In this document: one piece after another, positions 687 through 27,854 of the stretch
How the letters are laid out: the number at the start of each line of letters is the position of its first letter
Numbering within the stretch: position 1 is the stretch's first letter
Source: Marasmius tenuissimus
Lineage: Eukaryota > Basidiomycota > Agaricomycetes > Agaricales > Marasmiaceae
DNA: 64,000 bases
NCBI GenBank assembly: GCA_029532415.1
Contig: JAQOTA010000058.1
Span: forward strand, 124,001 to 188,000
Reading direction: 5' to 3'
The notes under the pieces: generated by a model
Seen by the model: only the letters and a program-made list of their open reading frames with translations
The model's database searches: none
Told to the model about the DNA's origin: nothing
Program-made: the position numbers and the translations under genes

Positions 687-1720
687 TCCCCCCTCTGTCC
701 AAAGGCCGGTGATTCGACGCGTAACTGATGCTCGAAGTTGATGGGTCTCTGGACTTAACCTGTTCTCTTGGGTATGATGGGACTTTGTGATATTGTACTG
801 TGCTGCATTATATGATTTGGGATATGTACGGACGTGTGTATGCCTCTGATTTGACCCCGATATTCACTCTAACCGGGAAACGGTAGCCTATGGTGCCACT
901 TCAAGAACTCCGTAGCCTTCTGCAGCTTCGAAAGATACAGCTGCAGGTAGGAGCTGGTAGGACGGCGCAGGCTGAGGTACGAGTCGGCCCGTACGCCCAC
1001 GCATATAGGCGCCGTCGCCGTCGGGCCTTATTCAGTGACAAAAACAACTTAGGGCCTGCCCTTTCGACAGCTTTACTGCAGCACTGTCACCACGATTTCA
1101 TCCAGCTTCGCAGTATTCACTCTCTTGAACCACTATGCCTGGACTATACCACGTCAGAACAGTAGGCTACTTGGTTCGAATTCAACGTTGCAACTCAAGC
1201 GTCGATTGAAATACACCTCTTCGATCTGTTCTGCTATGAAGCGCTGTCAAAAGCTGCAAATGAGCAACTCGATCACGACTAGTATCCTCGAAGCGTTAGT
1301 ACCTCCGTATCATGAATGTACTGATCGAAATCCAACCTACCCCCACCTAAATGTCTTCTTTGTAGTTCAATTCAACTTACACTACGACGCTACCACGTCA
1401 GCGCCATCGGGGCCGTTGCATGACCCCGAGCCTGACCTAGGGCCCGAGCTCGCTGATGTAGCCTGACCTGAGGCATGAGTGCTGGGAGCGCCTGCAACAC
1501 ATTTCGGAAGGCAAGATTTGCGCTGGCGGGTGGCGGGTGTGTCATATCCGAACGGTAAGTTTCGATCATACTTATCCTCTTTACTTCCTCAACGCCTTTG
1601 CTAGGTCGCGCCGATCGTAAACACCCGTTGTCATATCTGCCTATAGGTGCACTATTTGAACCTCTGGGCCTCACTTGGAATGACCCCATACTACCCTACC
1701 TTCGTCGTCAGCCAGCTATC
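687..1720. other. Intergenic region upstream of the PDR transporter
   Basis: This 1.0-kb stretch lies between the unknown gene and the transporter start. It contains short overlapping open frames (for example 890-1165 and 1125-1466) with no recognisable protein family, no coherent splicing between them and an Arg-run artefact near 1000-1025; I do not call them genes. It also holds one copy (777-874) of a diverged direct repeat found again after the transporter. The transporter promoter must lie in its right half. Confidence 0.5.
777..874 (+). repeat. Left copy of a diverged direct repeat flanking the ABC transporter
   Basis: The block beginning ATGGGACTTTGTGATATTGT and ending GATATTCACTCTAAC aligns over its whole length, with small indels, to 6951-7064 on the same strand. 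Shared stretches include ATGGGACTTTGT, ATGATT and ACGGACGTG. It lies downstream of the stop codon of the unknown gene, just as the right copy lies downstream of the transporter stop codon. Confidence 0.6.
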
Positions 1721-4700
1721 ATGACTGAACCAACTCAACTCACTCCCTCGTCAGAGGAACCATTCACTCATACTGATACCTCCGATTCGACCGTATACTC
1801 AGAGATAGGTGCAGAAGCTCAAGGACAAGTCCGTCAACTGGCTCGCACCGTCACTGGAATATCTGCGGCACATTCTCAGTACGACCCTCAGCAAGACTCA
1901 GGTCCTTTCTCCGGTGACGTAGACCCCGCCTTGGACCCTCGGTCCGGGCAGTTCGACTACCACCGCTGGATTCGATGGCTACTCGATATCAGCAAACGGC
2001 AGTTGGATCCGAACTCTACCAGGACTGCGGGGCTTAGCTTCACGAATCTGAACGTTCATGGATACGGGAAGCCCACCGACCACCAAAAGACGGTTGGAAA
2101 TGTTGTATTGGATGCTCCCGGAATGGTGCGGGGGATGTTTGGGTCGCAGGGTCAGCGAATCGATATCTTGAGGGACTTCAAGGGTGTTGTGAAAGATGGC
2201 GAGATGCTCGTAGTCCTTGGCCCCCCTGGAAGGTGAGTCTCATTTCAAAATATGTCGCGGGATTGCAATGACAAATGTCCAAATCTCAGTGGGTGCAGTA
2301 CGTTCCTGAAAACCATCTCTGGGGAGACGCATGGCTTCTACGTCGATGAAGGTGCGCAGGTGAATTACCAGGGTACGTAGGATGTCATTCATGACTTTTC
2401 TCGATGTCTCACGTCTTTTTCCCCGTAGGGATTCCATGGGAAATCATGCACAAAGACTTCCGGGGTGAGGTCGTCTACAACGCCGAGAACGACGTGCACT
2501 TCCCCAACTTGACCGTTGGTCAAACACTGTCCTTCGCAGCGAAGGCTCGTACCCCACGAACTCGACTTCCTGGTGTCACCCGTGAGCAATGGGCGGAACA
2601 TATGAAGGACGTTGTCATGACTGTCTTTGGTTTGAGCCACACGGAGAACACCAAGGTTGGAAATGACTTCGTTCGTGGTGTTAGTGGCGGAGAGAGAAAG
2701 AGGGTTAGCATCGCAGAGGTGGCGTTGACTGGAAGTCCTCTGCAGTGTTGGGACAACAGCACTCGTGGTCTCGACAGTGCGACGGCCTTGGAGTTTGTCA
2801 AGACAGTTCGCCTTGCCACCAAATACGTTGGCTCGACTGCCATCGTTGCGATTTATCAAGCAAGCCAAGATATCTATGATGTATGTCTTTCTCTATCTTC
2901 TTACATTTGTCTCTCTAAATAACTCTCCACAGGTCTTCGATAAAGTAACCATTTTGTATGAAGGCCGACAAATATACTTTGGTCGAGCAGATGCGGCCAA
3001 GAAGTTCTTCGTCGATTTGGGATTTGAATGTCCCGAACGACAAACCACCGCCGACTTCTTGACGGTATGTCCGAATTTTTTTCAGTCTTCTGCCCCTGCT
3101 CAACTCTCACATTACAGTCACTGACGAACCCTGCTGAACGCAAAGCCCGACCCGGCTACGAGTCGAGAGTGCCCCGCACGCCCGACGAGTTTGTTAAGGC
3201 GTGGCAGTGTAGCAATGATCATAAAGCGCTTTGCCAGGAGATCGAAGATTTCAACCAGCGCTATCCAGCCAGTGCAGAACGAGTTGACCAATTTCGCTTG
3301 GGCCGGAGATTAATGCAAAGCAAGGGACAGTAAGTCGTGATGCCATTCAGATACGACCCACATCTCTAACCACTTTGTCAGGCGTCCCGAATCGCCTTAC
3401 ACCATTTCCGTCCCCATGCAGGTCAAACTGTGTCTCTGTCGTGCCTTCCAACGTTTGCGCGGCGATATGTCCATGGCCTTGACTTCGATTTTTGGGAATT
3501 TCATAATGGCCCTCATCGTCTCCAGTATCTTCTACAATATGCCGGTTGATACGAGCAGTTTCTATGGCCGCTCAGCACTCCTGTTTTATGCCGTCTTGAT
3601 AAATGCCTTCGCAAGCATGTTGGAGGTGAGCACCCTCCTTCCACTATGGCTCACTATTAACAGACCAAAATAGATATTTGCCCTATATGAACAACGCCCC
3701 ATCGTGGAGAAACACAGTCGCATGGCTCTCTACCACCCTTTCTCCGAGGCGATGGCTTCCATGATATCCGACCTTCCCGTCAAGATCACCACTGCCATCA
3801 CTATGAACCTCGTCCTTTACTTCATGACCAACTTGAGGCGGACGGCTGGGGCATTCTTCATTTATCTTCTATTCTCCTTCTCATGCACATTATGCATGTC
3901 CATGATCTTTCGGACCATCGGTGCCTCTGCCAAAACGCTCTCCGCCTCCATGACCCCGGCTGCGCTTATGATGCTCGCCCTCGTCTGTTACACGGGGTTC
4001 GTGATCCCCATTCGCGACATGCATCCGTGGTTCAGATGGATCAATCACATCGACCCTATCGCCTACGTCTTCGAGAGTATGATGTTGAACGAGTTTCACG
4101 GCATCGAATACCCTTGCGTGGCTTACATCCCCGCTGGTCCTGGATACGAGAATGTTGGCGGCACCGAGAGAATATGTTCGGTCACCGGTTCTGAACCTGG
4201 GCGAGCGTTTGTTCAAGGCTCAAGGTTCCTCAGCGAATCTTTCCGGTATGTGAAATCTCACATGTGGAGGTAAGGTCTTTGTTTCTATGCCTATGAATGC
4301 AAGCCATGCTAAAAACACGGCTCAGAAATTATGGGATTCTTATCGTGTTTATTATCTTCTTCATGATTACCTACCTCGCTGCGACCGAGTTCAACGAAGC
4401 TGCGAAGTCGAAAGGAGAGGTACTCGTCTTCCGGAGGGGCCACGTTCCTCTGTCGAACAGGAAGACGGACGACGAGGAAACCACTATCATCACCGCTCAG
4501 GAGAAGAGAGTGGTAGAGATGGACAGTGGTGACGGAGCTGGAATTATTCAGAAGCAGACATCAATCTTCCATTGGGAGGATGTTTCTTACGACATCAAAA
4601 TCAAGGGGCAACCACGGAGGATCCTTGATAATGTCGACGGGTGGGTTGAGCCTGGAAAGTTGACCGCGTTGATGGTACGCCAGACTTCGTCGTCTTCTGT

Positions 4701-6726
4701 GTTGCTTTGTTTTGATATGTTCACTCCTCGATAGGGCGCTTCAGGTGCCGGAAAGACAACTTTACTGGACACCCTTGCCAGTCGTGTTACTACGGGCGTC
4801 GTCACCGGCAGTATGTTCGTTGATGGCAAGTCTAGAGACGAGTCTTTCCAGCGGCAGACAGGATACGTCCAACAGCAGGATCTTCATCTGGAAACTTCAA
4901 CAGTACGCGAGGCGCTAATATTCAGTGCACGCTTGCGGCAACCACACGATGTTCCCGACAAGGAGAAGACCGAGTATGTTGACGAGGTCATTCGTCTGCT
5001 CGGTATGGAGAAATATGCAGATGCGGTAGTCGGTGTTCCGGGTGAAGGTACGAAGGCCCATGGTTGCCTTTTTGAAATAGTCTCTTAACTCCATTCCACA
5101 TAGGTCTCAACGTAGAGCAGCGCAAGCGTCTCACTATTGGTGTTGAGCTCGCCGCGAAGCCAGCCCTACTTCTTTTCCTCGACGAGCCCACTTCCGGCTT
5201 GGACAGTCAGACTGCCTGGTCTATCTGTACCCTCCTCCGCCGACTCGCAGACAATGGGCAAGCTATCCTCTGCACTATCCATCAGCCATCTGCTCTTCTC
5301 TTCCAGGAGTTCGACCGCCTGCTGTTCCTCGCTCGAGGTGGACGGACCGTGTATTTCGGCGATATTGGGAGGAACTCTCGAACCCTGATTGACTACTTTG
5401 AAGGACAAGGCGCCGACCCCTGCCCTTCGGAAGCCAACCCAGCAGAATGGATGCTTCATGTTATCGGAGCTGCTCCCGGCGCTACAGCCAAACGTGACTA
5501 TGCCGAGGCTTGGAGGCAGAGTCCGGAGTACACGGCGGTGAAGAAGGAACTGGCGTCCAAGAAGGAAACCTTGAGTGTCAAGCCTGCAGATCCGGCAGCG
5601 GCTCAGGCCTCGCACCGCGAATTTGCTGCACCATTCTCCGTCCAGCTTTATTACTGCTGGCGACGAGTTCTTGAACAATACTGGCGCACCCCTTCCTACA
5701 TCTACTCGAAACTACTTATGTGTATCCTTTCGGTATGTCTTTTTTTGTTCTTCATTTCACAGTTGCCGGCGATCTAAAGACGATTCAGTCTCTTTTTCTA
5801 GGATTCTCCTTCTGGAAGGCGGGCAACACCAAACAGGGTCTCCAGAACCAGATGTATTCCATCTTCATGCTGATGACCATCTTCGGAACCCTCGTCAACC
5901 AGATCATGCCCAACTTCGTCATTCAGCGTGCTCTCTACGAAGTTCGCGAACGCCCGTCAAAGGCCTACTCCTGGAAAGCATTTATGCTGGCTAATCAGAT
6001 CGCCGAGTTGATGTGGAACGCTCTTGCGAGCGCTCTCGTCTTCTTCTGTTGGTATTATCCCGTTGGTCTTTACCGGAACGCGGAGCCTACCGATGCAGTC
6101 ACTGAACGTGGGGGATTGATGTGGTTGTTCCTCCTTACCTTCCTCCTTTTCACCTCGACATTCACCCATATGGTCATCGCTGGAATTCCTACCTCCGAAA
6201 CTGCGGGCAACATCGCCGAACTCTTGTTCCTGTTCATTTTGTTGTTTTGCGGGTGAGTTTACCCGGAGACTTCGTCGTGTCATACGAGCTGAATGACTCT
6301 TGCTATAGCGTTTTAGTCTCACCAGACAACTTCCCTGGGTTCTGGATATTCATGTATCGTGTCTCGCCGTTCACGTACCTTATCGACGGGATGTTGGCCA
6401 CAGCATTGGCCAACGCCAGAGGCTACTGCTCGGACATCGAAGTCTCCGTAGTCAACCCCCCTGCGGGTCAGACTTGTGGGCAGTACTTCTCCACCTACCA
6501 GTCCCTCGTTGGTGGTAGTGTGCAAAATCCGGATGCAACTTCCAATTGCCAGTACTGCTCAATTGACGACACAAACACCTGGCTCGCTAGAATACCTTCC
6601 CGTTACGATCTGAGGTGGCGAAACTTTGGCTTGATGTGGGCGTATATTGTTTTCAATTTCGTCGCGGCGTTGTTTTTCTATTGGCTTGCGCGTGTTCCGA
6701 AGAAGTCCAAGGCGAGGAGCGTTTGA
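1721..6726 (+). CDS. PDR-type (ABCG) full-size ABC multidrug transporter
   Basis: Twelve exons join to 4404 nt (1467 residues), the usual length of fungal PDR pumps: 1721-2232, 2290-2372, 2429-2880, 2933-3064, 3118-3329, 3382-3625, 3674-4269, 4326-4674, 4735-5047, 5104-5732, 5789-6252 and 6309-6726. The order is NBD1-TMD1-NBD2-TMD2. NBD1 has the PDR-type degenerate Walker [14 protein letters not shown] (Cys for Lys), the signature [10 protein letters not shown] and a Walker B-like [12 protein letters not shown]2 has a canonical Walker [10 protein letters not shown], a degenerate signature LNVEQRKRL and Walker [13 protein letters not shown]. Each half ends in about six hydrophobic segments. 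Such proteins export hydrophobic compounds, including azoles and terpenoids, across the plasma membrane. Start choice: 1721 begins an acidic N-terminus typical of the family; an upstream in-frame Met at 1598 is less likely. It lies 9 kb from the terpene cluster, so a role in product export is conjecture. Confidence 0.93.
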
Positions 6727-11187: not shown

Positions 11188-12473
11188 CTACTGGTGTTGA
11201 ATGTGAGATTCCACGAATTTTCCTTCATTACAATCCCTTTCAGCCTGCCTTTCGACAGAACTGAGCTCATGCTCGTCCGAAGTCATACCGCTGTAAGTCG
11301 CCTCACTCACTCCGGCCACCCTGAAGCTAATGGTTTTGAAAGTGGTTGGGGCCGCGTCGTTCCTCTCCTTCAACGCCGAGACTGTCCAGATCGTAGCCAA
11401 TAGCAGGCATATAATCTCAAAGTAGATGTTGGTGATGAAGATGTATGCTGGAAAAGGAACCCAGATAGTAGCTGAGCACTGATGCGACCGGACGCGCCAA
11501 ATCGATACTTACCTCCCAGGTAGAAATTATGGATGTTGAACGCAATGGCGACCTGTATGATGCTGAAGACGCAAGGGAAGAAAAAGCTAGACAAGGCCCA
11601 GTAGAATAGTGTCTGGATCTTGTGTGTTGTTCGACTTCTGGCAGTCCCTGAAAGGATTGTTTGAGCGAAATTCATTATATTATTGCCCGTAGGGCCTGAG
11701 AACGGCAGTACTACCTTGAGTAAACACTCCACCTGTTGACCTTTCGAGTGCATAGCTCGCCCACAGTCGCCACAAAAACCAGCCAGAGGTGTAACTACGA
11801 AGCAGATATCGATCAGCTATTCTGATTGTGGCTCGGAGAAACGATAGTGCACATACCAGTTGTCAAACACTTGCAAAATCCATTCCACCTTCGTTGTAAA
11901 ACCGTGATCCCACAACCGCTGAAAAATAAGAATAGCCTCCGCATCGGTCTTGTGTGCGCTCTCCTTCGAAAACTGGACTATGAAGACCAGTAGGTTTGTT
12001 ACGCGTGCGACCTTGAAAATGACGATCGGAATAAATATGGCGGTGAAGATACGTTTTGGTGTGGCTCGAGGGGGATAGACGGCATAGAGTCTGAACGCGA
12101 GGATGCAGTCCATGAGGACGGGCAGCAGTATGAGCAACCCCACATAAGCCAACAAAGTATCCACAGGGAAAGCCTTGTTTGGGTCCAGGATTCGGCCAAC
12201 CTTCAGGAGGATCAGAATGCCGAGTGTCGAGATTGAGGATCAACCCACGTATATCTGCATGTTCAAAACTCCAACAACGAGGCCCATAATCACGGCAAAA
12301 ACGTTCATGAGGAAGATAGGTGACCTTCGAAGTGAAGGTGTTGACCAAAAGAAGAGGAGGATGAGCAGTGGTACGAGGGCGGCTGACCATACCGCGCCAA
12401 TAATGAGCAGGTTCAGTGATGGTGTAATGGCCTCGATGTAGATGTGAAGGGGATCGGACTGGCTCGAAGACAT
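11188..12473 (-). CDS. Seven-transmembrane protein, basidiomycete family (paralogue A)
   Basis: Five exons (12249-12473, 11857-12200, 11715-11794, 11513-11647, 11188-11447) sum to 1044 nt and 347 residues. Seven hydrophobic segments are readable, starting LNLLIIGAVWSAALVPLLIL. Other recognisable stretches are STPSLRRSPIFLMNV, MDCILAFRLYAVYPPR and a final helix IYFEIICLLLATIWTVSA, followed by a hydrophilic 60-residue tail. This is a GPCR-like topology common in Agaricomycetes, but no ligand or G-protein motif lets me assign a receptor class, and it is not an obvious STE3 pheromone receptor. It is a tandem paralogue of the gene at 13223-14503, with the first three exons exactly equal in length (225, 344 and 80 nt). 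Function unknown. Confidence 0.82.
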
Positions 12474-13222
12474 GTTGCGAACAGTCTGCTCACCAACTCG
12501 AGCGAGGCTTGGTTATAAGGCGTCACTGCTGGATGGAACGTCGGGAGAAGCAAGATGATATCAGCCGAGGTTCCCGTTGAAACTGATGTTGTACTTATAA
12601 CTATGCAGTAGAACCCCAAGTACTTGAAGCCGTGACAATTGACCGGGTTCACACACGAGTAACTGATGGAAGGCGAGCCTAAACCTCCAGTCAGTGTTTA
12701 TCCATCGTCCGACAGGGGACAATCAGGTTGGTCCGAGAGTGTCGTAGGAATCCTCAAAGTGAGAATTATGATGTGACCATAGTAAGTAACGCGGGAGTAC
12801 GCCAATCACTGACAGATCTTCGTGGTTGCTTGTGTGAGCCCGCATGGTCGATCATTTAATGGCCCACAAGAGCCTCCACTCCATTAAGACTTGAGCTTTA
12901 TGAGTTTGCTGATCGCTGTCGGTAATGTTACCACTTGCTTGTTGCCAGAAGATGGAAGGTTAAGACAAGAGCCTTCGCTGGATGTTTGATGGTGGTGAAC
13001 CTTCCATGATCAATCCCGTGACTGTCGATCTTTCCTCGGATCGTCGGCACCGCCGGTCCGAGCTCGCTGCTGTCCGTTCTAAATCCTGGAGAGTACCAGT
13101 TGGAAGTTGTTATTTGAGTATGTAGGTGCAAGTAATATACATCATTTTTAGGGTAGGTGAGCTGTATAAAAAGAGATAAATAAGCGTTTAACATTTCCGT
13201 ACAGCATAGGATAGTCGATCCA
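12474..13222. other. Spacer between the tandem seven-transmembrane genes
   Basis: A 749-bp spacer holding the promoter of paralogue A and the 3' flank of paralogue B. No further gene is visible. Short minus-strand frames here (12413-12652, 12928-13344) are extensions or shadows of the flanking genes. Confidence 0.5.
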
Positions 13223-14503
13223 TCACGGATCGTATCGGTATTGACCATTATTGGACTTTCCATCAGCGGAGTAACTTCCTGTCCGTACTTCATGGGCGAG
13301 GCGAATGTCGTGCAGCTCATGGTCGACGCTTGCAGTCGTACCACTCACAACGTGAGTCTCCCGGCTTGCCGCTCTGAAACTGATGTCTTTTAGGGTAGAC
13401 CCCCCGGCGGAGGACTCGTTGGACTTGTTCGCCGAGACTGTCCAGATCGTCGCAAGCATAACGCAAATGATCTCGAGGTAGATGTTGGTGACAAATATGT
13501 AGGCTAATTCGAACGGTCGGACAGTCAGTGGCTAGGGTTTCAACATCAACTTCCCTGGTAACTCACCTCCCAAAAAGAAGTTGTGGTTGTTAAAGACGAT
13601 CGCGACCTGGACTATGCTGAATATGGTGGGGAACAGAAAGGAAGACAGGGCCCAGAAAAATAGCGTTTGGATCTTCCTCGACATTCCGCCTAGAGTCGAA
13701 TGTAAACCTTAGCCACGAATCCTAGGATAACGATAATGAACTTTACCTGTGGAGCTCACTACCCCAGACGATCTTTCCATCGCGTACCCGCCCCATAATC
13801 GCCACAAGAACCACCCGGAAGTATAGCTATGCAAAACATTAGTGACAACAGACATCGATATAATTCATATGGTCACGGACGTACCAATTGTCGATCACCT
13901 GAAAGATCCACTCTATCTTGGTTGAAGGATTGGTGTCCCAGAGGCGCTGGAAGTTGGCGACCGCTGAACCGTTGTTATTCTGCGTCAAACCAGTTGAGAA
14001 CTTCACCAGAAAGACGATAATGTTCGTGAAGCGTCCGATTTTAAAAAGAACGATAGGGACGAATATGATGGCAAAGAGACGCGTCGATATTGTTCGAGGG
14101 GGGTAGACTGCGTAGAGCCTAAACGCAAGGATGCAATCCATGAATATAGGCAAGAGTATGATCATTCCAATATATGCCAGTAAAGTCTTTATCGGGAATG
14201 CAGCTCTTGGGTTCAGGATTTGCCCGACCTTCAAAGAATCAGCGGGCGTGAAGCAATGGGAAGTGGTGGGACACTCACATATAGCTTCAGGTTCATAATC
14301 CCAAGGACGATTCCAAGAACGACAGCAAAGACGTTCATGTAAAAGATCGGCTGCCTACGAAGGGAAGGTGTAGACCAAAAGAGGAGCAAAACGAACAAAG
14401 GTACGAGAGCAGCCGACCATACTGAGCCAATGATGAGCAGGTTCAGTGAAGGCGTTATACCCTTGATGTATAGATCGAGGGGGTCGGGCGAGCCTGAGGA
14501 CAT
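13223..14503 (-). CDS. Seven-transmembrane protein, basidiomycete family (paralogue B)
   Basis: Five exons (14279-14503, 13885-14228, 13747-13826, 13567-13689, 13223-13503) sum to 1053 nt and 350 residues. The protein begins MSSGSPDPLDLYIKGITP, nearly identical to paralogue A, and shares LNLLIIGSVWSAALVPL, STPSLRRQPIF, MDCILAFRLYAVYPPR and the last helix with ATIWTVSAN. Seven membrane segments are followed by a hydrophilic tail of about 75 residues that has diverged strongly from paralogue A. Exon 4 is 12 nt shorter than in A. Both copies are intact, so they are a recent functional duplication rather than gene and pseudogene. Function unknown; a receptor-like role is only suggested by topology. 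Confidence 0.82.
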
Positions 14504-15562
14504 TTCTAGGTTGAGGACTTAGTACCCGAGCCAAGCATTTACATATAGGCCGCAAGTCTATGAAATCGGGTGCTGATGTTCGTAACTTTTGGGTGACGGT
14601 AAGTGTCAGCCGTGTTTGAAGAGTATCAACGACTGTGAATGATGATCACTGTCAAATAGTGGCGCGTGCAGACTCTAATTCAGTCAAGGGTGAGCCGAAC
14701 CAGATAACCAGCTCGTAACTAACCACAGTGGGGTAAGATCGTTGACAGATGTGCGTTAATGGCTGTGGTATTGATAAAGGGAAACATCAAAGAAGCGCAT
14801 AGGTGAGATAATCCGGAGCACATACTATTTCGTCACACGATGTGCGATGGCGAGGGATATGCGATTTTGTCTAGAAAAAGGGGTTTCCACCAGTTCCCTG
14901 CTTCGGGAATTTTTTCTAAGCATATTAGAGTACCTATGAGTTTGTCATTAGCACCGCTAGCCCACAGGATAGAGGGAACGGGAATGAGAGCTGAAAAACC
15001 TCAGAATTTCATGTGTGATAAGGGCGTGACAGTTCAGGAACCATTGATTGATACATCGGATACAGAGGGACAAGTACATTTTCATTGGAAGCTATACTGG
15101 TAGAGTCTAATTACCAAATATAGGGGGAGAGGGGCCAGAGAGTGTGAGCTCAATGAGTGAAGGAAGCTGAGAGGGAGTTCGAGGAGTGATGTGGACACGC
15201 TCACAAAATGATCGCCATCAGGCCGCCGCGAGTGACAAACCGTGACCCAAAAATCTTGCAATTCTCGTGCCCATCTCGGTCGCTGCCCGACACTACGAGG
15301 GAGGAACATAAAATACTCAAAAAATCAGGTTAAGGTTTTTTCACTATATAAAATGTTTCTATCATGAAGAAACCGTGATAGCCGCTGCTCAGAGCCCGCG
15401 GAGAGAAATTTTCAAAAAAATCGCAATTCCGTATCCAAAATAGTAATCGGGACGAAGAAAATTCAATACTACGGAGTTAGGAGGGGCCGCTGGTAGAGTT
15501 TTGAAGTATAATATCGAGGTCCCGATCGATATCCCTATTACCCTAACGCTGGACTTTGTATT
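14504..15562. other. Intergenic region between paralogue B and the terpene synthase
   Basis: About 1.06 kb. The left half carries the promoter of paralogue B. The right half (about 15300-15500) is AT-rich with short A and T runs and forms the 3' flank of the terpene synthase. The open frame at 14840-15103 has no recognisable product. No RNA gene is visible. Confidence 0.45.
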
Positions 15563-16860
15563 CTACGCCTGGACAGACACTGTTCTAATCACAGGCAACA
15601 GCTCCACAACCCGATCCTTCTGTATCTGTGGACCCGCATCACGGAAGTACCTCCACGACTCAAAGCTCCAACATTCATTGGCGCGAATCCAGTTCCCTAG
15701 GCCGTCGACGTACCGCAAGGCCATACCGTCTATTTCTGGAGATCCGAAGGATGGCAGTCTCCTGGAGAGTGCGATGAACCTTGAAACTATGCTGTCATGC
15801 ATCGAAGTAATGTGGCTGATTGCTTCATCAAGGGAGAAATCGTGGTGCATCATAACAATGGACACAATGTTATGGGCTTCGCCCCGGGCTTGTTCGACGT
15901 TGTACGAGTACAGATCCTTTGAGCGGGACGTGGTCAGCCTTGGAGTTCACTTTCATGTAAGTAGGAAATTGTATGGCCCACATTCGCGAGAATAATCATG
16001 TCGACAGCACAAATACTGAGCTCGGCCAAAGGCTCAGTTTGTAGGAACGTCGGAGGAATGTCCATCTCCATGAGAAGAAGCACGAACATGGGCATCGCAC
16101 ATATGTCACCGCGTCGGAAGATCATGTAACTCTCTGGAGTGACTGTAGGGCACGGTTGCTATAATTCAGCGAATCGGAAGTGGAGGTCGAATACTTACGT
16201 TGATTCTCGGACCCACGAACTTCAGCCTGCTGAACCACAGAGAGGAGATAAGTCTCGAACTCCGTGATGAAATGCCTCTGACATGAATCGGTGAGCACTC
16301 GTTTAGCATTGTCCCAGAAGCTGGACATGGGATGATGAGTCTAGAGATAGTGGCCGGACGAAGTGTATACGTGAACATACGACTGTGTAATTGGACCTAT
16401 GATGGGCCCATCGGCAGGAGCAGGGCGATGGCCCCTTAATATGTCCATCACGATGCTCACCCACTCTTGAACCTCCGCGGGGTTCATGGCGTCTGTTCTG
16501 TCCTACTCACCATATGATTCAGAAAGGGGAAGATGATCATAGTTGCCGGGGACGTACATCAAAGTAACCCACATAGAACATGAGGTCGCAAACCACACGA
16601 CATCCCGCTGCAAAAAATTTCTGTAAGGACCCAAAAGGCGGTAGAGGCTGGAGTCAAAAACCTTTGGAAAGTTTCGGGAATCCAAGAGAAGCTAGTAGCG
16701 GTGGATCGAAAAGCTCGAAAGCAGCTTGAACTTTCGGTGTCATCGCGTTGAACCCGCGACTCCAAGCCATGGATTCTCGACGACATTCTTCGTAATGAGG
16801 GTTTATGGTTCTTTTCCATGGCCAGTATTGCAGGATATCGGGAAGGATGAAGGAAGGCAT
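15563..16860 (-). CDS. Sesquiterpene synthase (class I terpene cyclase)
   Basis: Six exons (16662-16860, 16558-16607, 16381-16502, 16199-16320, 15982-16142, 15563-15916) give 1008 nt and 335 residues, the usual size of basidiomycete sesquiterpene synthases. The N-terminus MPSFILPDILQYWPWKRTIN and NPHYEECRRES fit the family. The aspartate-rich motif is DDRTD (about residue 83), where many relatives have DE-x-x-D, and the NSE motif is intact as NDLYSYNVE. The C-terminal end has YVDGLGNWIRANECWSFESW followed by the RY pair (WRYF). The enzyme should ionise and cyclise farnesyl diphosphate with three Mg2+ ions in the cytosol; the product cannot be told from sequence. A 55-nt intron cuts exactly between the first and second Asp of DDRTD. 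It is in tandem with, and 453 bp from, the P450. Confidence 0.93.
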
Positions 16861-17313
16861 GATAGATGGAGAGAGAAAGGTTTCACTTGACTTGACAAGA
16901 AAACCAGTCCATTATGGAAGCTATTTGAACTTCTGGGCGACCTGTAGGGTGCAATCACATACCAAAATCGGACCTCCGGAGAATTTCTGAGTCTATCATG
17001 AATGCCTTATCGAACTTGGAGAGGCGGGGCCTCACCTACTGATGAACCAACCATTGGTTTGGCTTGGATCAGAGGGAAAGGCCTCTTCCATCGCCAAGCG
17101 AAAGAATGCGTGGGATGCTGTCGGGGAGCGGTAATTGAGTGTAGCACATGTTTTCGTTACGATGGACGGTTCGCCGCAAGTTCGTTGGGATGCACGCAAT
17201 AAGTTACGACCCACTGGGTTCCCGCGCTGATAATTGATCAATATCCATTCCGTACCTAGGATCGGACTACCCCAGAAAATTGAACCCGCGACTGCCGCAA
17301 AAGCCGATTTACT
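16861..17313. promoter_or_regulatory. Promoter region of the terpene synthase
   Basis: A 453-bp spacer between the terpene synthase start (16860) and the P450 stop (17314), both on the minus strand. It must contain the synthase promoter and the P450 3' end. I see no clear TATA box or repeated operator-like motif. Confidence 0.4.
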
Positions 17314-19568
17314 TTACAGAGGTGCTCTAGCCGTCACTATGATCGGCATGGCCTGTTTTCCGTTCACAGTCGGTGCTTCTGCCTGGCCCAACTTCCAGAC
17401 AACTTCGGCTTCCGAGGGGGAGAACTCGAAATTCTGTATTAGAACAGCGAGCAAAACCTCTGTGATAAAATGTTAAACACTATGCGGGGGTACGAGGATC
17501 ATAGCGCGCCACGTACTCATAGAGATTTCAGCGAACTTGTAACCACTAAATTGGATCGTTAGTTTTCTCATCCCCAGCCCTGAAGCGGCACTTACATGCA
17601 GCCTCGCGGTCCCCCGATGAACGACATCCTAAAGAGGAGTTGAATAAGTCCATCGAGAGACTATCGAAAATACTCACAACTTGGGATGCACCCCAGGAAT
17701 CTTCGAATTGACAACTTCGTCGGGCAATGGCTTCAACCACCGCTCTGGCTTCCATTCAGCGGCATCCTCTCCCCACACCGTGCGGTCTTGGTTGGCAGCC
17801 CTGACTCCAATATGTACAACCGTTCCTTTGGGAACAAATACCTCTGTAATGGGAGTGCCGTCGACGCCCGTCATAGGTTTGCTCAATGGGAGCACCGAAT
17901 CTTTCAGACTGGATCTTGTCAGCTGAGTCCGAGAACGAACCGTCCCCGACTCACGCTTCGCGACTAGAGGTGATCGCAGCAGGATACCTATCCGCAAAGT
18001 TGAATGGAGTTAGAACACCACCGGACTAGCTCTGGATAGACTACTCACATACGCAAAGTCTCGCGGGCGACTGCGTCCAGAAGGGGAAGATTGCACAGGG
18101 TTTCGTAGTCAAGATCGCCATCCACGCTGGCATTGTCGATCTCCGCGCGAAGACGGCCTTGGATGTCATGGTTTTTCGACAATTCTTGAAGACACCTGGC
18201 AACTGTAGTGCTTGTTGTATCAACTCCCGCAAAGAGGATCACATTCATCTGTCCTAAGAGCTCCTCTTCTGTCATCTGACCATCCTCGGAATCATATGCT
18301 TTCACTGAAGTAAAGTGTCAGCACCGGATCAACGATGCAAGGAGCAACCACTAACTGAGGAGACTAGTGAAATCTTTCCCTTGGCCGATCTGTTCCTTTA
18401 TAACGGAGTCACCCAATCTCAAACCCTCCTTTTTCTTTGCCAGAATAGCTTTCGTTGTTCCGTCCAGAATATCAACGAGATCCCTCGCCAAGCGTAAATC
18501 CGGGAGAGGAGCGTAGTCAATGAGTGTTCGGCGCAACCCTGGAGACATTGTGCGCATGAGAAGTGGTAAAATTTGCATAGGAATGATCATCCGTTTCGCA
18601 GCAAACCTTTGTAGTAGAGCAACGAGCGAAGCGTCAACAAGATTTTGCAAAGAAACGAGAGCGAGGCGACCCACAGCAACTGCTTCATCGCATGCAGCGC
18701 TTCCGGATCCGACTCTGCAAAAGAATGTCCCAAACCCGCCTGTCCAATAAATTCGAGAGCCGTTAATCCTAATATGGGCAGTATGTCGACTTCGGACGGT
18801 GTTTTTGGGGGCAGGTCTTTGGTCAGTTGCGACGAGGTCTTGAAGTCTACCATTAGTACTCGGACATTAAGGAATAGAGTGGGACCAACCTGATGGGCAA
18901 CACCATACAGAACAGGAAGAAGATCGCGAAGGCGAGACGGGGAAAATACTGGGTTCATAATCTTCCGAGATCTTCGATGGTGAGCACCTTCCTGAGACTG
19001 AGTATTGATCTGGTAAGAGGGTTGATTGAGCCCATACCAGTGGTGCTGACAAGGCAAGGTCCAAACATTAGGCGATTTGCCCTAGCGTAAATTCAGTCCT
19101 GGAGCCTCGATAAGATAGATGGTGCTCTTCACTGACGCAACGAAAGTTTCGGGCATGTTGAACGCGTCTACTTGAAAGAGAATGGCCTCCATCGCTGCAT
19201 GATCAAAGACATACAAGTGCTTTCCCTGAGCGATAGGTCAATACCCTCCAGAACACAGTATACCGGATGATATTCACCCCGAGAAGAGCGCGCAACTTGA
19301 CTACTTTCCCGTAGTTTTGCGTGAGGTCTGCATGAAACGCGTGGCCATCTTCTGAGATAAGTTGAGGTATATTACCTTCACAATGGATGAGAAGGAAGTT
19401 CAGCACATATATTCTGCTATAACACTCACCAAGGAAAAGACTTTCGGGTGGTGGTCCTCTCACGTTACGGAGAGAGGGAACTGTTCGCTGATAGAGATGT
19501 CGAGCTACCAGCCAGATACCTGTTGTTAGGAATACCAATACAGGTGCTGAAGACAAATGCTCGAGCAT
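17314..19568 (-). CDS. Cytochrome P450 monooxygenase, membrane-anchored
   Basis: Thirteen exons give 1611 nt and 536 residues: 19430-19568, 19278-19375, 19137-19225, 19038-19081, 18890-18987, 18675-18838, 18356-18606, 18049-18304, 17955-17987, 17678-17908, 17596-17628, 17517-17545 and 17314-17459. The N-terminal helix PVLVFLTTGIWLVARHL is an ER anchor, followed by the Pro-rich hinge RGPPPE. Catalytic motifs are all present: I-helix FAGVDTTSTTV, ExxR as ETLR, PERW, and the heme loop FIGGPRGCIGYKF with the Cys thiolate. It probably oxidises the sesquiterpene made by the adjacent synthase. The exon 4/5 acceptor is AAG (ending 18988), chosen because the CAG four bases upstream breaks the frame. 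The 51-nt intron 18839-18889 is frame-neutral and has a TACTAAT branch point. Confidence 0.93.
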
Positions 19569-19973
19569 GCTGGAGACGGGTGGTAGCAATGAAGGTTGCT
19601 TTGTGAAGGGAGATACATCGCATCCATGGCATTTCCGAAGTCCTTGGACACATGAACCAGAACGGTCTGCGTGAGCTTCTCGAATCGCGAACTGAACGCG
19701 CACGAACCAAGCCGGAAATGGCAGCACAGCTTCTACACGGTAATTGCCGGTCGAAGATTGTGGCCGCGGCTTCGCACGCTTTGATAGACTGTACGCAATT
19801 TCAGTCATCCATCATGTTCTGCGATTACGATTAACAATGGAAAGGACAATTTCTGATCAATTCATGGAGAAGAGGCTTAATCAGCTTGACCTGCAAGCCC
19901 CTACATTGTGTATTGCCTGCACGAGCGCGCTCTTCTCTCCTGCACCTCCACCTCCACCTCCATCAGTCCAAGG
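19569..19973. promoter_or_regulatory. Divergent promoter between P450 and oxidoreductase
   Basis: A 405-bp head-to-head spacer between the P450 start codon (19568, minus) and the oxidoreductase start codon (19974, plus). It includes a CCACCTCCACCTCCACCTCC pyrimidine-rich tract just upstream of the plus-strand start, typical of fungal core promoters. A shared promoter would allow the two genes to be co-induced. Confidence 0.5.
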
Positions 19974-21456
19974 ATGTTCGATTTTATCTCCAGAGTGTAC
20001 AATGTACGCGCTCTTATCCTGCTCAACACGTATCATCACTGAAGGTCTATCTACTCTAGATCTCTAATCCTCCTGCACCAGCCAAAGTAGACCCGGATGT
20101 GCGTCCGCTCAAGTTCGGATGCCTCGGTGCAGCAAAAATTGCCCCAGGTGCTCTCGTCAAGCCTTCAAAGTCACATCCAGAGGTCGCCCTATATGCAATT
20201 GCTGCCAGAGATCCACAGAGAGCAGAAGAGTTTGCCAAGAAACACGATTTTCAGAAGTCCTACGGTGGCTCTACAGCGTATCAAGGTGTGGCGGTTCACG
20301 GTTAACGCCATCCCTGCGACTAACGCATATCAAAACTCTAAGACCTGATTGATGACCCCGAAGTCGATGTGATTTACAATCCTCTTCCCAACGGTCTGCA
20401 TTTTGAATGGACTATGAAAGCCCTCAAGGGAGGAAAGCACGTTCTGCTGGAGAAACCCGCTACGGATACAGCTGATGAAGCATCACAAATATTTTCGCTT
20501 GCCCAGAAGAAAGGTCTTGTTGTCCTGGAAGCTTTCCACTATAGGTATGCCCTTGATATACTGTGCTTTTTGACGACTAATCTTTCCCAGGTTCCATCCT
20601 TCAGTCCAGCGTATCAAAGCTATTCTCGATAGCAAGGAATTGGGGGCTATCAAAAGTATATCTGCAGCTCTGAGTGCGCCCGACGGAACGGCCAAGGAAG
20701 ATGATATCCGCTGGAACTACGAATTGGGTGGCGGAAGCACTATGGATCCAGGATGTACGATTGCTAGCCTCACCTATTCCTCTAATGCTAAAAATCATAT
20801 CATTTCTAGCTTACACTGTCAACATTCTGCAGTACTTGGCATCTCCCTCAAAGTCGAAATCGGTCCTCAGTGCCACCGCCACGGTATTCTCCCCGCAACC
20901 TCAGCATAAGCAAATCGACAACAAGTTTTCTGCGACAATCGACGTCGAAAACGATATCCTGGGAGAAATATCTTCCGAGCTGAATGAGCCTCGTATCTTT
21001 GGCATCATTCCTCGTCTACCGAAACTCAAAGCCACCGTTCATTGTGAAGGCGGCACCGTCGAGATATTCAACTTTTTGATTCCTCACTTCTATCACTACA
21101 TCACCGTTTCACCGTCCGGTAAATCCAGTCGCGTCGAGAAGGCCTACAAATTCTCGGACGGCTCCAAAGGGGAGGAATGGTGGACGACCTATAGGTAAGG
21201 TTCAGCTCGCTTGACTTCGACAGCGGCTGACATTCCATCGTAAGATATCAATTGGAAGCTTTTGTCGACAAAGTCCGAGGACGTCAGCCTCAGACTTGGA
21301 TTGAAGGTCAGGAAACCATTGACGCCATGAAGTTAATCGAGGAAATCTATGCGAAGGTAATTCAGCTCGTCCTTGCCGTGTGCTATACTGATTATCCTAC
21401 CGCAGGACGGGTTCGGTAGTCGCCCTCACTCTAAGTATGTCTACCACGACGATTGA
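19974..21456 (+). CDS. Gfo/Idh/MocA-family NAD(P)-dependent oxidoreductase
   Basis: Seven exons (19974-20003, 20060-20285, 20343-20544, 20591-20754, 20810-21194, 21245-21356, 21406-21456) give 1170 nt and 389 residues. The Rossmann nucleotide-binding start is KFGCLGAAKIAPGAL; then come VIYNPLPNGLHFEW, the family motif EKPATDTADEA with its catalytic-region Lys, and AFHYRFHPS. The C-terminal half is the alpha/beta substrate domain. The fold matches dihydrodiol dehydrogenase or D-xylose 1-dehydrogenase relatives, which oxidise or reduce hydroxyl groups on sugars and cyclic diols. The first exon encodes only ten residues and was chosen because the splice yields an unbroken N-terminus (ISNPPAPAKVDPDVRPLKF). 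Position next to the P450 suggests it acts on a hydroxylated terpene or its glycoside, but it could instead be a catabolic sugar enzyme. Confidence 0.88.
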
Positions 21457-22194
21457 TGCCGTTCTAGAGCTTTGGGCTTGGATTTCTTGATTTTTCGGAA
21501 GCTGTAGCACGTCGTGTTCTTGTGAAGTGAATGAAGTTACCGCCCATTTTCCCAGAGGGCATGAACCCTGTTCCTTGTCGGGACCTTTGAATAATGTTTA
21601 TGACCCCGCTTATCTCCGTATGCTAATGACATTTGACCCGTTTTGGCAGTGTCGTGAAGCTCAACAGACTTTAACCGGTACTTGTGTAAAATGCGAAGTA
21701 CGTACTGTCATCAGATCGCGAGGGCTGCCCCTCACACCCCGAAATCAAAACAAGCATCTATGTATAGCCCGCAAAAGCTATGTTTGCGCAGTGGCTCTTA
21801 TACAACGCATGATTGTCCCTCAATACTGAGATCCAACCTCATGTACGCGTTTTCATCTGGCCTGACTCGACCACATCAAAGTCGAGCTGTGTTGAGCTAT
21901 GACGGTTTGAACTCCGATTCTATTCCTCCATGTCATATTACGTCCATGGCCATGACCACATTCACGGCGCACTCGGATTGAGTTGTACATTGCAGCGGGT
22001 GATGCGCGCATGCGAAGTTCGTACCTTTCACGAACCATCAATCGATCATTCCTGGAGCTGGAAACGACGATATTTCGAAATATTTTCTCATAGGAATAAC
22101 AGCCGTTGCGGACGCAAATCTGTTATCAAGCGGACCCCACAAGCGAACAAGTTGTGCGCCTTTCCGCCTCATTGACATTCCCCCATACATCCCC
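21457..22194. promoter_or_regulatory. Promoter region of the FAD-linked oxidase
   Basis: A 738-bp spacer between two plus-strand genes. Short open frames on both strands (for example 21527-21829) have no recognisable product. The start codon at 22195 is preceded by a C-rich pyrimidine tract (ACATTCCCCCATACATCCCC). Confidence 0.4.
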
Positions 22195-24152
22195 ATGCTG
22201 TCTCCGGGTCTCGTTCTCCCCTTCTTACTCACACTCGTCCCAATCGCACTGGGCGCTGACAGCAATACCACAGAAGTATGTTCTATGCTGAAGGAGAAGC
22301 TTACCAGTGCCTCTACGGTACGCTTCCCGGACGATCCTGGGTATGAACGCGGTGAGCCATCAGCGCAGCGCTCCCTCTTCGCGTTTCTGATGCGTCTTGT
22401 CAGACATCGCACATTTTGCGGTATCTGTACAGCAGAACTCAACGTGCTCGGTCGAGCCCGGAACTTCTCAGGACGTCGCCACTATCGTGAGTCTTATTTC
22501 CCGGGAATTCAACGCGAGAATAATTCTCATCCTCTGGTAGATACAACTTGTCGGCTCTTCCCGAGTTCCCTTCGCCGTACGTGTTTCTACGTGTTTTCAG
22601 TCTCGATGAGGGCCTATCTCAATTGCCACAGGTTAAGGGTGGCGGACATAATCTCAATCCGGGATTCTCGTCGACGCGTGGAGTACAGATCACTATGACC
22701 AACTTCAATCAAGTGTTTTATCAGCAAAATACCAGCACGGTTGACATAGGCTCTGGTCTTACTTGGGACGAGGTCTATTCGCAACTTGAGTCTTACAATG
22801 TCACTGTAGTCGGGGCTCGTGCGACGGGTGTGGGGGTCGCTGGCCTACTGCTTGGTGGAGGTGAATTTTTTATTTCAACGATTGAGTTGACCGTTTCTCA
22901 ACGTCGCCCGGGACATTAGGTTACTCCTATAAGACCAACCAGTACGGGCTTGCGGCTGACAATATCGTCGCAATGGAAGTGGTGCTTCCAGATGGCCAGG
23001 TCAAAACTGTGACCGCCTCCACTGACAAGGATTTGTTTTTTGCTCTTCGAGGAGGTGGAAACAACTTCGTTCGTATCCTTCTTCGTAATCTCTCGACGTG
23101 GCAAGTCCATCTCATCGCCTCACTAGGGGATCGTCACGAAGTTCACCTTGAAGGCTCATCCTCAAACAGCTGTTTGGGTAAGTCCGGAAACTACCAATGC
23201 CCAGTTCTGTCAAGAGGGTCTGACCCGACATACAGGGAGGATCGATCATATATCCCAGTACCGAATTCGACGCTGTTTCAGCCGCAGTGCTCAACTACAC
23301 CAGCAACAATGCCGACCCCAAAAGTGTAATTCAGTGTACTTTCGCGACTCTTCAAGGACAGGTATCACCAAGCTGATTCATATTCTTTCCGACCACTTCT
23401 AATCAAAGTCTTAGGGTATCATCATGGTCAACTTATTCTATGATGCCCCTGCATCTCCGGCTTCAGGACTATTCGATGCTTTCCTGACTATACCTTCAGT
23501 GTCGTCGGATATCGGCGTCCGTTCTTATTTGACACTCGTGGAAAGCGCAGGTACGGACGTAACAGCCAACATGAGGTATGATTGACCATTGCCTTGTCAT
23601 CTGAGTATTCGTGCTCAAGACCGTTCGTTTTCAGAGGACTCTACAACACCGTATCCCACACTGCTATCACCCCAGCTCTCATGCAGGTGTTGTTGAATGA
23701 GACTCTAGTAAGTATCTGCTCTTTGCAAGTGAAGCAACTTGAAGACTCAACGACGACCGTAGTCCTATGGTTCGCAGCTGCAGTCCCAAAGCCTTTTCCT
23801 CAACGGTTACGCCCTCGAGCCTTTCCTTCCTCAAGCCTACAAGCAGGGTGATACCGACACGGCCTACCCTCCTAACCGTAACGAAAACATCCATCCCATG
23901 AACGTATACTATGCCTGGACAGACGCACAGTCCGACTCGTTGATGCTCGAGACCTCTCACACGACGGTAGCCACCCTCGACCAATTCCTCGCGTCATCGG
24001 GAATACGTGCTTCAGCCAAATATCCGAACTATGCACTATACGATACGAAGGTGGAAGACCTTTACGGAGACAACCTAGCGAGATTACGGTCCATCAAGAA
24101 ACAAGTAGATCCCTCAGATGTCATGGGGCTGGCTGGGGGTTTCAAGTTGTAA
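22195..24152 (+). CDS. Secreted FAD-linked oxidase (PCMH/berberine-bridge type)
   Basis: Ten exons (22195-22351, 22404-22486, 22541-22576, 22632-22860, 22920-23068, 23127-23177, 23236-23361, 23415-23575, 23635-23707, 23763-24152) give 1455 nt and 484 residues. A signal peptide is clear: LVLPFLLTLVPIALGAD. The FAD-binding PCMH domain shows VPFAVKGGGHNLNPGFSST (the His is the likely covalent flavin site), GVGVAGLLLGGGYSYKTNQY and GGGNNFGIVTKFTL. The position of the second flavin-linking Cys in bicovalent relatives is occupied by ARATG, so attachment is probably single. The C-terminus has a BBE-like segment (LYGDNLARLRSIKKQVDP). Such enzymes oxidise alcohols, phenols or terpenoids with O2 and release H2O2. 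It is the last gene of the presumed cluster. Confidence 0.92.
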
Positions 24153-26784: not shown

Positions 26785-27854
26785 ATGGGCAAACTCATAG
26801 GTCAGCTTGCAGTTGAACTCTCAATCTTGTGTACTAAATAGACTGTCTAGATGGGTTCCTACCCTGGGTCATTTTCCCCTCTCTGGCAGTCGCTGGATTC
26901 TATTGTATCATCTACCAGACCGAAGTCAATGGCCTTGGTGCTGCACTGAAGGAGCATTGCCCCGCCACAGTCGAGGATCCATTCCCTTTCAGGCTTACAT
27001 ACTCTGGAGTCGATGGGCTCGACGTCTTCCTTTGCGTCCTTGCGGCAACCTTTCACTCGGCATTCAACCCCAATTCATTGCAACTCCTCGCCTATTTCCT
27101 CACCCAAGCGACTCCAATTATTGTCTTCGTCTACCTTGACAGCGCCAGGCGCAGAAGCCATTTCACACTGCGCTTCCCAGTCATTTTTGTTTCCCTCATG
27201 CAACTGGTCAGCTTCGGAGCCACATTTTCCTTCTACTGGCTGCCTTTTATTACCACAGGCGCGGCCAAAGCAGTTGGAAGCAAAAACACAGTTGTATCTA
27301 AGGCAGATGCTGAGGCTATCGCCTTCGGCAACATCGTAGGAATCGCTCTCCCCACCGTCGGGATGTTGGTTTTACACAACCCGTACATGACGGTGATTTG
27401 GCAGTTCGTCCCAGTCCTGGCCTCCGTAGCGACCCTCATCTACCTCACATTCCGATCTCCCAAAAATCATCCCCAATCCGGATACAAAGACATCCGCAAT
27501 AACTACGTTATTGTTATGATTGTCAACATTGTGACTCATCTCGCTTTAGTTGGACCAAAGCTGGGTGATGTCGACGCACTAAAAGCGTTCCTCCTGCCAT
27601 CTCTCAGCATCAACACTTCCAATGCCAGCGTCGAGCGCTTAGTCCTCAGTCTCCTTCAGTGGGACTTGATATTCGGAGTGGGCGCGAGTCTGCTCGCCAC
27701 TCTCTGGTTCGCTCGAAGTGCACGGCAGCTTGTACTGCTGGTCATTTGGAATACCGTGGGGACAGTCCTCCTAGGCCCGGGAGCCGTCTTCGCGACAATT
27801 GCCCTATGGCGTGAATCCAGACTCCACCCGGCGGAAGGAAAGAAAAAACAGTAG
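26785..27854 (+). CDS. Polytopic integral membrane protein of a fungal secondary-metabolism-associated type
   Basis: Two exons, 26785-26800 (16 nt) and 26851-27854, give 1020 nt and 339 residues. The tiny first exon supplies MGKLI and part of a codon; the splice creates DGFLPWVIFPSLAVAGFY. About eight hydrophobic segments follow, ending with a membrane helix and a Lys-rich tail (EGKKKQ). The segment RLTYSGVDGLDVFLCVLAA followed by a helix and a basic loop (DSARRR) resembles the fungal multi-pass family that includes AtmA/PaxA-like proteins of indole-diterpene clusters; I make this comparison from memory and hold it loosely. It converges on SPT16 with 164 bp between stop codons. It could belong to the terpene cluster or be independent. 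Confidence 0.7.

What the first reader, a model, noticed from the sequence alone, without database searches (positions are those of the whole stretch)
15563..24152. Candidate sesquiterpenoid gene cluster: synthase, P450, Gfo/Idh/MocA oxidoreductase and secreted FAD oxidase
Four adjacent, intact genes form a chemically sensible pathway. A class I sesquiterpene synthase and a P450 are in tandem on the minus strand. A reductase/dehydrogenase shares a 405-bp promoter with the P450, and a signal-peptide FAD oxidase follows. Terpene synthase plus P450 plus oxidoreductase is the usual core of basidiomycete sesquiterpenoid clusters. The Gfo/Idh/MocA plus secreted BBE-type oxidase combination is not one I recall with a named product, so the pathway may be undescribed.
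Basis: partly seen in the sequence, partly recalled or inferred. Interest (0 to 1): 0.85.

Follow-up and report, generated by a model that had tools for sequence, protein, structure and literature searches.

The report
Conserved mushroom sesquiterpenoid gene cluster
Four neighbouring, intact fungal genes look like an assembly line for a sesquiterpenoid (a 15-carbon natural product), and three of the four also sit on shared contigs in other mushroom species, so this looks like a real, inherited cluster whose product is still unknown.

Summary
The window lies in Marasmius tenuissimus. All four genes exist at the stated coordinates and are intact: sesquiterpene synthase (STS, 335 aa), P450 (536 aa), Gfo/Idh/MocA oxidoreductase (389 aa) and BBE-type FAD oxidase (484 aa). 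The P450-oxidoreductase gap is exactly 405 bp. Comparison supports the cluster reading. The STS falls in a clade of 13 proteins (SH-aLRT 100), sister to the delta6-protoilludene synthase DbPROS. In 4 of these species (5 contigs) the FAD oxidase's clade is there too. The three gene trees agree in their main branching. The P450 lies inside the cluster, but its orthologues were not searched. The STS clade lacks the Phe three residues before the Asp-rich motif (Gly/Ala/Val in 13 of 13; Phe in 81 of 97 others), so its product may not be protoilludene. Against: the closest relative, AFHP31, has no listed partner genes; several species have only part of the set; no shared promoter motif was found. 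Product unknown; a new member of a known kind.

The parts
15563..16860 (-). Class I sesquiterpene synthase (STS), 6 exons, 335 aa; DDRTD and NDLYSYNVE motifs, C-terminal RY
   Evidence: model; PF19086, E 1.3e-39; 100% to AAF712_012112; PDB 8h72 protoilludene synthase, E 6.1e-93; tree; predicted fold
17314..19568 (-). Cytochrome P450, 13 exons, 536 aa; N-terminal hydrophobic anchor, AGVDTT, ETLR, FIGGPRGCIG
   Evidence: model; PF00067, E 4e-56, on 427 of 536 aa; best longer match elsewhere in the genome 41%; intron shared with paralogues, by my reading
19569..19973 (.). 405-bp divergent intergenic region between P450 and oxidoreductase starts
   Evidence: no word of 10 or more bases shared with the other two cluster upstream regions beyond chance
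19974..21456 (+). Gfo/Idh/MocA oxidoreductase, 7 exons, 389 aa; Lys of EKP and Tyr of GxY kept
   Evidence: model; PF01408, PF22725; PDB; homologues; tree; residues
22195..24152 (+). BBE-type FAD oxidase, 10 exons, 484 aa; flavin His in GGGHN kept, no Cys for a second flavin bond; hydrophobic N-terminus like a signal peptide (by eye)
   Evidence: model; 100% to PM082_012737; PF01565, PF08031; tree; PDB; residues

Best explanation
It is a sesquiterpenoid biosynthetic gene cluster inherited in marasmioid, mycenoid and related mushrooms. Shown: the four intact genes; the synthase's place in one clade next to delta6-protoilludene synthase; the contig sharing and agreeing trees of synthase, oxidoreductase and FAD oxidase in other species. 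Inferred: the synthase ionises farnesyl diphosphate with its DDxxD/NSE magnesium site and closes it 1,11 by way of a humulyl cation, as described for clade III; the changed residues before DDxxD make a product other than, or besides, delta6-protoilludene. The membrane-bound P450 hydroxylates the hydrocarbon. The FAD oxidase, in the secretory pathway, takes an (allylic) alcohol to an aldehyde or ketone with O2, as EriM does in erinacine making. The NAD(P) oxidoreductase acts on a ketone, vicinal diol or lactol of the oxygenated terpenoid, using its Lys/Tyr pair. The order of the last two steps is a guess.
For: Intact genes. Clade of 13 STSs with SH-aLRT 100, sister to DbPROS with 99. 9 of 9 clade STSs, against 0 of 12 other listed STSs of the same 7 species, share a contig length with an oxidoreductase-clade protein (Fisher p 3.4e-6); FAD clade 5 of 9 against 0 of 12 (p 0.006). 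None of the 89 distinct contig lengths of the 93 NCBI-listed STSs outside the clade is shared with the oxidoreductase or FAD clade. Control: none of 70 contigs of the common-form oxidoreductase and none of 93 contigs of other FAD oxidases is a clade-STS contig. Two of the shared contigs are only 49.8 kb (Lentinula aff. detonsa) and 61.6 kb (Dendrothele bispora). Agreeing branching in the three trees. Active-site shift in the whole clade; the residue lies in the same predicted helix, 66-86, as the Asp-rich motif's start. Role of F76/F77 in the active cavity of pentalenene synthase (PMC10045451, passages). FAD oxidase EriM makes an allylic aldehyde in a basidiomycete terpenoid pathway (PMC12843870, passage).
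Against: Contig identity is inferred from equal contig length; distances and gene order in relatives were not seen, and some shared contigs are 1.5-10 Mb long. P450 orthologues were not searched. Marasmius sp. AFHP31, whose STS is 89% identical, has no oxidoreductase or FAD oxidase among the 120 listed for each. Mycena kentingensis STS P0009 has no listed partner. In M. fiardii the FAD oxidase is on another contig; M. venus has no listed FAD-clade hit; Paramarasmius palmivorus has a FAD-clade oxidase without a listed clade synthase or clade oxidoreductase. The oxidoreductase clade holds 36 of the 48 tree rows and only 9 of these, besides the window's, share a contig with a clade STS, so that gene also lives without a detected synthase. 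One out-of-clade STS and one out-of-clade FAD oxidase of M. galopus share a contig (806,592 bp), so chance sharing occurs. No shared promoter word. Which published LnSTS enzyme, if any, the C. nuda protein P0005 is remains unknown; two of those make delta6-protoilludene.
Confidence: 0.75

Rival explanations
1. Core cluster only: synthase, P450 and oxidoreductase form the pathway, and the FAD oxidase is a neighbour from the large secreted AA7/BBE family that acts on sugars or other compounds.
For: By my grouping of 63 exon matches, 37 other places in the genome carry related FAD oxidase pieces. The FAD clade is on another contig in M. fiardii and not listed in M. venus.
Against: The window's FAD oxidase is in an 11-protein clade (SH-aLRT 100) that shares contigs with the clade synthase in 4 species and with the clade oxidoreductase in C. 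nuda (19.1 kb contig).
Confidence: 0.15
2. The clade makes plain delta6-protoilludene, and the cluster is one more protoilludene-type pathway.
For: Sister in the tree and best PDB match is DbPROS, a delta6-protoilludene synthase (PMC10608071 table passage). Two L. nuda (= Collybia nuda, synonymy recalled) clade III enzymes make it (PMC9948225, passages), and P0005 may be one of them.
Against: Phe at -3 of the Asp-rich motif, present in DbPROS, is Gly/Ala/Val in all 13 clade members; in the window -4 is also non-aromatic.
Confidence: 0.4
3. Chance neighbourhood: an orphan synthase-P450 pair next to two unrelated redox genes.
For: The genome holds many P450 and FAD oxidase genes; AFHP31 lacks listed partners; one chance-like contig sharing in M. 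galopus.
Against: Contig sharing in 7 other species with within-species and common-form controls, and agreeing trees.
Confidence: 0.05
4. The oxidoreductase is a sugar enzyme (D-xylose dehydrogenase-like) that makes or recycles a sugar for a glycosylated product, not a terpenoid-modifying enzyme.
For: Best PDB relatives are sugar 3-ketoreductase and kin; UniRef names relatives D-xylose 1-dehydrogenase; it occurs in many Mycena species without a listed clade synthase.
Against: No glycosyltransferase family appeared in the 45 distinct flanking ORF pieces scanned with Pfam (only part of the flanking ORFs). Dihydrodiol dehydrogenase, which acts on non-sugar diols (recalled), is also among the PDB hits.
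Confidence: 0.2

Closest known systems
DbPROS, delta6-protoilludene synthase of Dendrothele bispora (PDB 8h72)
   Same: Clade III synthase, like length and metal motifs; the only row in my tree that I know to be characterised, and sister to the clade; best fold match, TM 0.93
   Different: Phe before the Asp-rich motif replaced by Gly; one residue fewer just after the NSE motif. D. bispora also has its own member of the new clade, P0039
Armillaria gallica Pro1 (armillyl orsellinate) cluster
   Same: Protoilludene synthase next to P450 genes (PMC7778616, passages)
   Different: [quoted passage not shown] no Gfo/Idh/MocA or BBE-type gene is named in them
Erinacine (eri) cluster of Hericium erinaceus
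   Same: Basidiomycete terpenoid cluster with P450s, NAD(P) oxidoreductases and FAD oxidases; EriM oxidises to an allylic aldehyde (PMC11969743 and PMC12843870, passages)
   Different: Diterpenoid, UbiA-type cyclase, glycosyltransferase; EriB/H called short-chain dehydrogenases
Lepista nuda LnSTS enzymes (LnSTS-01, -02 protoilludene; LnSTS-04 pleostene)
   Same: Same species (now Collybia nuda; synonymy recalled) as P0005, which lies in the clade
   Different: Which LnSTS, if any, is P0005 could not be told; the words 'gene cluster' do not occur in that paper's main text

Membership tests
Class I (clade III-like) fungal sesquiterpene synthase | DDxxD-type Asp-rich motif | tested here: met
   DDRTD at 83-87
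Class I (clade III-like) fungal sesquiterpene synthase | NSE triad NDxxSxxxE | tested here: met
   NDLYSYNVE at 218-226
Class I (clade III-like) fungal sesquiterpene synthase | All-alpha class I fold | tested here: met
   Model pLDDT 93.5, nearly all helix; the 50 Foldseek matches shown are terpene synthases by their titles, best 8h72
Class I (clade III-like) fungal sesquiterpene synthase | Groups with clade III enzymes | tested here: met
   Sister to DbPROS, SH-aLRT 99; DbPROS was the only row that I know to be characterised
Delta6-protoilludene synthase | Makes delta6-protoilludene from FPP | not testable with these tools
   Needs an enzyme assay
Delta6-protoilludene synthase | Phe at -3 of the Asp-rich motif as in DbPROS (my own criterion) | tested here: not met
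   Gly80 in the window
Fungal biosynthetic gene cluster | Core and tailoring genes adjacent | tested here: met
   Four genes in 8.6 kb
Fungal biosynthetic gene cluster | Linkage kept in relatives | tested here: met
   Same contig: STS + oxidoreductase in 7 other species, + FAD oxidase in 4 of them; P450 not tested; distances not seen
Fungal biosynthetic gene cluster | Co-regulation | tested here: inconclusive
   No shared promoter words; expression not testable
Microsomal cytochrome P450 | ExxR, I-helix AGxDTT, haem-Cys motif, N-terminal anchor | tested here: met
   Motifs in the model, by eye; PF00067
Gfo/Idh/MocA oxidoreductase | Catalytic Lys of EKP and Tyr (roles recalled) | tested here: met
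   K123 in 32 of 34 clade rows (2 gaps), Y209 in 33 of 34 (1 gap)
BBE/AA7 FAD oxidase | FAD_binding_4 and BBE domains, flavin His | tested here: met
   PF01565, PF08031; H98 in 11 of 11 clade rows and 108 of 108 others
BBE/AA7 FAD oxidase, bicovalent type | Cys for a second flavin bond (position recalled) | tested here: not met
   RGGGNNF; no Cys there in 11 of 11 clade rows

The most novel reading that the evidence does not exclude
The clade's synthase, with a pocket that has lost an aromatic side chain next to the Asp-rich motif, makes a sesquiterpene skeleton other than protoilludene. The Gfo/Idh/MocA enzyme and the BBE-type oxidase work as a pair on a lactol or hydroxy-aldehyde of it, giving a lactone or dialdehyde class of products shared by marasmioid and mycenoid mushrooms and not yet assigned to genes.
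Probability: 0.25. Interest if true: 0.65.

Novelty: new member of a known kind. Interest (0 to 1): 0.45.

Why it matters
A terpene cluster read from one genome is a guess from adjacency. Here contig sharing of three genes is seen in several species, with within-species controls, which makes this a good target for pathway work. The clade-wide loss of an active-site aromatic residue gives a single, testable idea about why its product should differ from that of the neighbouring protoilludene synthase. The Gfo/Idh/MocA member is not named as a tailoring enzyme in any sesquiterpenoid cluster in the passages that I saw.

Tried and rejected
P450 frameshift: noted, rejected; the error was mine (missed phase-2 splice donor). 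No base was changed.

Shared promoter motif: 8- to 12-mers in the three upstream regions. The STS/P450-oxidoreductase pair shared 11 8-mers against a shuffled mean of 6 (11 of 200 shuffles as high) and 4 9-mers against 1.6 (21 of 200); from 10-mers on nothing stood out. Shuffles were of two-base blocks, so only a rough control.

A larger cluster: Pfam scans of 45 distinct flanking ORF pieces (not every ORF of the window) found a PDR/CDR ABC transporter on the left and SPT16 and other housekeeping genes on the right, but no further terpenoid-tailoring family. The transporter stays an open possibility.

Literature: searches listed no paper that I recognised as describing this gene combination; the library holds open-licence papers only, and I opened only some of the listed papers. 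'Gfo/Idh/MocA' cannot be searched in that form; 'gfo idh moca' and 'MocA' were used. Seen as 'find' passages only: PMC10608071, PMC9948225, PMC7778616, PMC11969743, PMC11109268, PMC9501842, PMC10045451, PMC10563020, PMC12843870, PMC8581569. The rest were seen as listings. PMC9501842, a review of basidiomycete sesquiterpenes, has no occurrence of FAD, dehydrogenase or oxidoreductase in its main text.

Rows dropped: the STS tree used 110 of 120 listed proteins (fragment P0014 and P0112-P0120 left out) plus the DbPROS part printed. The oxidoreductase tree used 48 of 120 listed; P0210 (59% identical) was not in it, may belong to the clade, and counts as 'rest', which used 118 of 120 rows. The FAD tree used 47 of 120 (all 11 clade rows, every third other; the two-domain P0250 left out). 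All trees are quick ones, drawn from the midpoint. In one search the label 'linked' was put on P0001 and P0002 as well; for P0002 (AFHP31) linkage was assumed and not found, and P0040, on the M. fiardii contig, was unlabelled. The counts do not use that label. Contig lengths in those calls were typed; metagenome rows were left out, save one oxidoreductase-clade row.

Structure of the synthase: asked, not ready in seven later calls, collected; fold search. It agrees with the sequence result and adds little.
Full report
What is there. Exon by exon, the window encodes four complete genes at 15563-24152: a sesquiterpene synthase (minus strand, 335 aa), a P450 (minus, 536 aa), a Gfo/Idh/MocA oxidoreductase (plus, 389 aa) and a BBE-type FAD oxidase (plus, 484 aa). 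The 32 introns are all GT-AG and 46-68 bp long. The intergenic region between P450 and oxidoreductase is 405 bp. The synthase and FAD models match public Marasmius tenuissimus proteins AAF712_012112 and PM082_012737 at 100% over 100%; the oxidoreductase matches AAF712_012114 (partial) except for one residue by eye. The locus numbers 012112 and 012114 leave one number between them, where the P450 would lie. The window's contig is 1,730,079 bp long, the longest-contig length also listed for P0001 and P0241, so the organism is M. tenuissimus. This species is reported as a cause of cacao thread blight (PMC8581569, passages); nothing here ties the cluster to disease. The predicted synthase structure (mean pLDDT 93.5) matches DbPROS 8h72 best (TM 0.93, 46% identity).

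Is it a cluster? Protein searches were run for three of the four genes (three allowed); each lists the best 120. The listed relatives carry contig lengths. In four of them, on five contigs (D. bispora, M. crocata, M. polygramma, two of M. sanguinolenta), the FAD oxidase does too. Within these seven species 9 of 9 synthases of the clade share a contig with the oxidoreductase clade and 0 of 12 other listed synthases do (Fisher p 3.4e-6); for the FAD clade it is 5 of 9 against 0 of 12 (p 0.006). Of the 93 NCBI-listed synthases outside the clade (89 distinct contig lengths), none shares a length with either clade. None of 70 contigs of the common-form oxidoreductase and none of 93 contigs of other FAD oxidases is a clade-synthase contig. 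One out-of-clade synthase and one out-of-clade FAD oxidase of M. galopus share an 806,592-bp contig, so single coincidences occur on long contigs.

Trees. In the synthase tree (111 rows) the window lies in a clade of 13 (SH-aLRT 100), with DbPROS as sister (99). The oxidoreductase clade (36 of 48 rows) and the FAD clade (11 of 47 rows) are set apart from the other rows at SH-aLRT 100. In the three trees the Collybia nuda proteins stand apart, the Mycena proteins group together (with Roridomyces in the oxidoreductase tree), and M. tenuissimus joins a group with M. fiardii, D. bispora and Lentinula (SH-aLRT 95, 96 and 95). That is what joint inheritance of linked genes would give. The trees are quick ones and unrooted.

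Against. Marasmius sp. AFHP31 has the closest synthase (89%) but neither partner among the 120 listed for each; absence from annotation and true loss cannot be told apart. M. kentingensis has a clade synthase and no listed partner. M. fiardii has its FAD oxidase on another contig, M. venus has none listed, and Paramarasmius palmivorus has a FAD-clade oxidase and no listed clade synthase or clade oxidoreductase. M. oreades has a clade oxidoreductase and no listed clade synthase or FAD-clade oxidase. The oxidoreductase clade is wider than the synthase clade: of its 36 tree rows 9, besides the window's, share a contig with a clade synthase. The lists are cut at 120 hits and the search needs shared exact words, so absences are soft. 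P450 orthologues were not searched; the P450's place in the pathway rests on position and on the lack of a close paralogue (41% in the best longer match elsewhere in the genome). No shared promoter word was found.

How it may work. The synthase keeps both metal motifs. Clade III enzymes are described as closing FPP 1,11 through a trans-humulyl cation (PMC10608071, passages). Position -3 from the Asp-rich motif is Phe in 81 of 97 synthases outside the clade and in DbPROS, but Gly (10), Ala (2) or Val (1) in the clade; position -6 is Tyr or Phe in 13 of 13 against Asn in 79 of 97. In the model both Gly80 and Asp83 lie in helix 66-86. In pentalenene synthase F76 and F77 line the cavity and contact the prenyl tail, and F76 changes alter products (PMC10045451, passages); that these stand at -4 and -3 is recalled. 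So the clade's product may differ from protoilludene; this is inference. The P450 has the usual motifs. The FAD oxidase keeps the flavin His and lacks the Cys of the bicovalent type; EriM, an FAD oxidase of the erinacine pathway, makes an allylic aldehyde (PMC12843870, passage). The oxidoreductase keeps Lys123 and Tyr209; by name its PDB kin act on sugars and on dihydrodiols. I put most weight on P450 hydroxylation, oxidation by the FAD enzyme and a redox step by the oxidoreductase, in unknown order.

Compared with what is known. Clade III synthases with P450s are a usual core of basidiomycete sesquiterpenoid clusters (recalled). The Armillaria Pro1 cluster has P450s, a GMC enzyme and a methyltransferase (PMC7778616, passages); the eri cluster has FAD and NAD(P) oxidoreductases but makes diterpenoids (PMC11969743, passages). 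Searches of an open-licence library listed no paper that I recognised as describing this combination; subscription journals are mostly not covered. Filing: a new member of a known kind, with a possibly new product.

Noticed in passing
window 1559-6723 (+): Pieces of a PDR/CDR-type ABC transporter about 9 kb from the synthase; could export the product, not tested.
   Followed up: partly
window 11200-14520 (-): Two tandem, similar membrane-protein genes (by eye) with faint STE2 pheromone-receptor similarity below the Pfam cut-off (E 0.0015 and 0.0063).
   Followed up: partly
window 26838-27854 (+): 338-aa membrane-protein-like reading frame 2.7 kb beyond the FAD oxidase, no Pfam match, no second copy found in the genome.
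   Followed up: partly
G000:C65 about 9.9-18.4 kb: Another synthase and FAD-oxidase-like exons about 7 kb apart; may be a second cluster.
   Followed up: no
G000:C26 about 97-182 kb: Three FAD oxidase paralogues (34-55% identity in matched pieces) within about 85 kb of a synthase.
   Followed up: no
G000:C18 595-619 kb: Four terpene-synthase exon matches within 24 kb, perhaps an array of synthase genes.
   Followed up: no
Mycena venus, contig 1,540,880 bp (P0137, P0150): Two oxidoreductases of the cluster clade on the contig that holds the clade synthase.
   Followed up: no
whole genome: PMC11109268 (passages) reports a pyr4-like cluster in M. tenuissimus GH-37 with a homologous one in a Psilocybe; not located here.
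   Followed up: no
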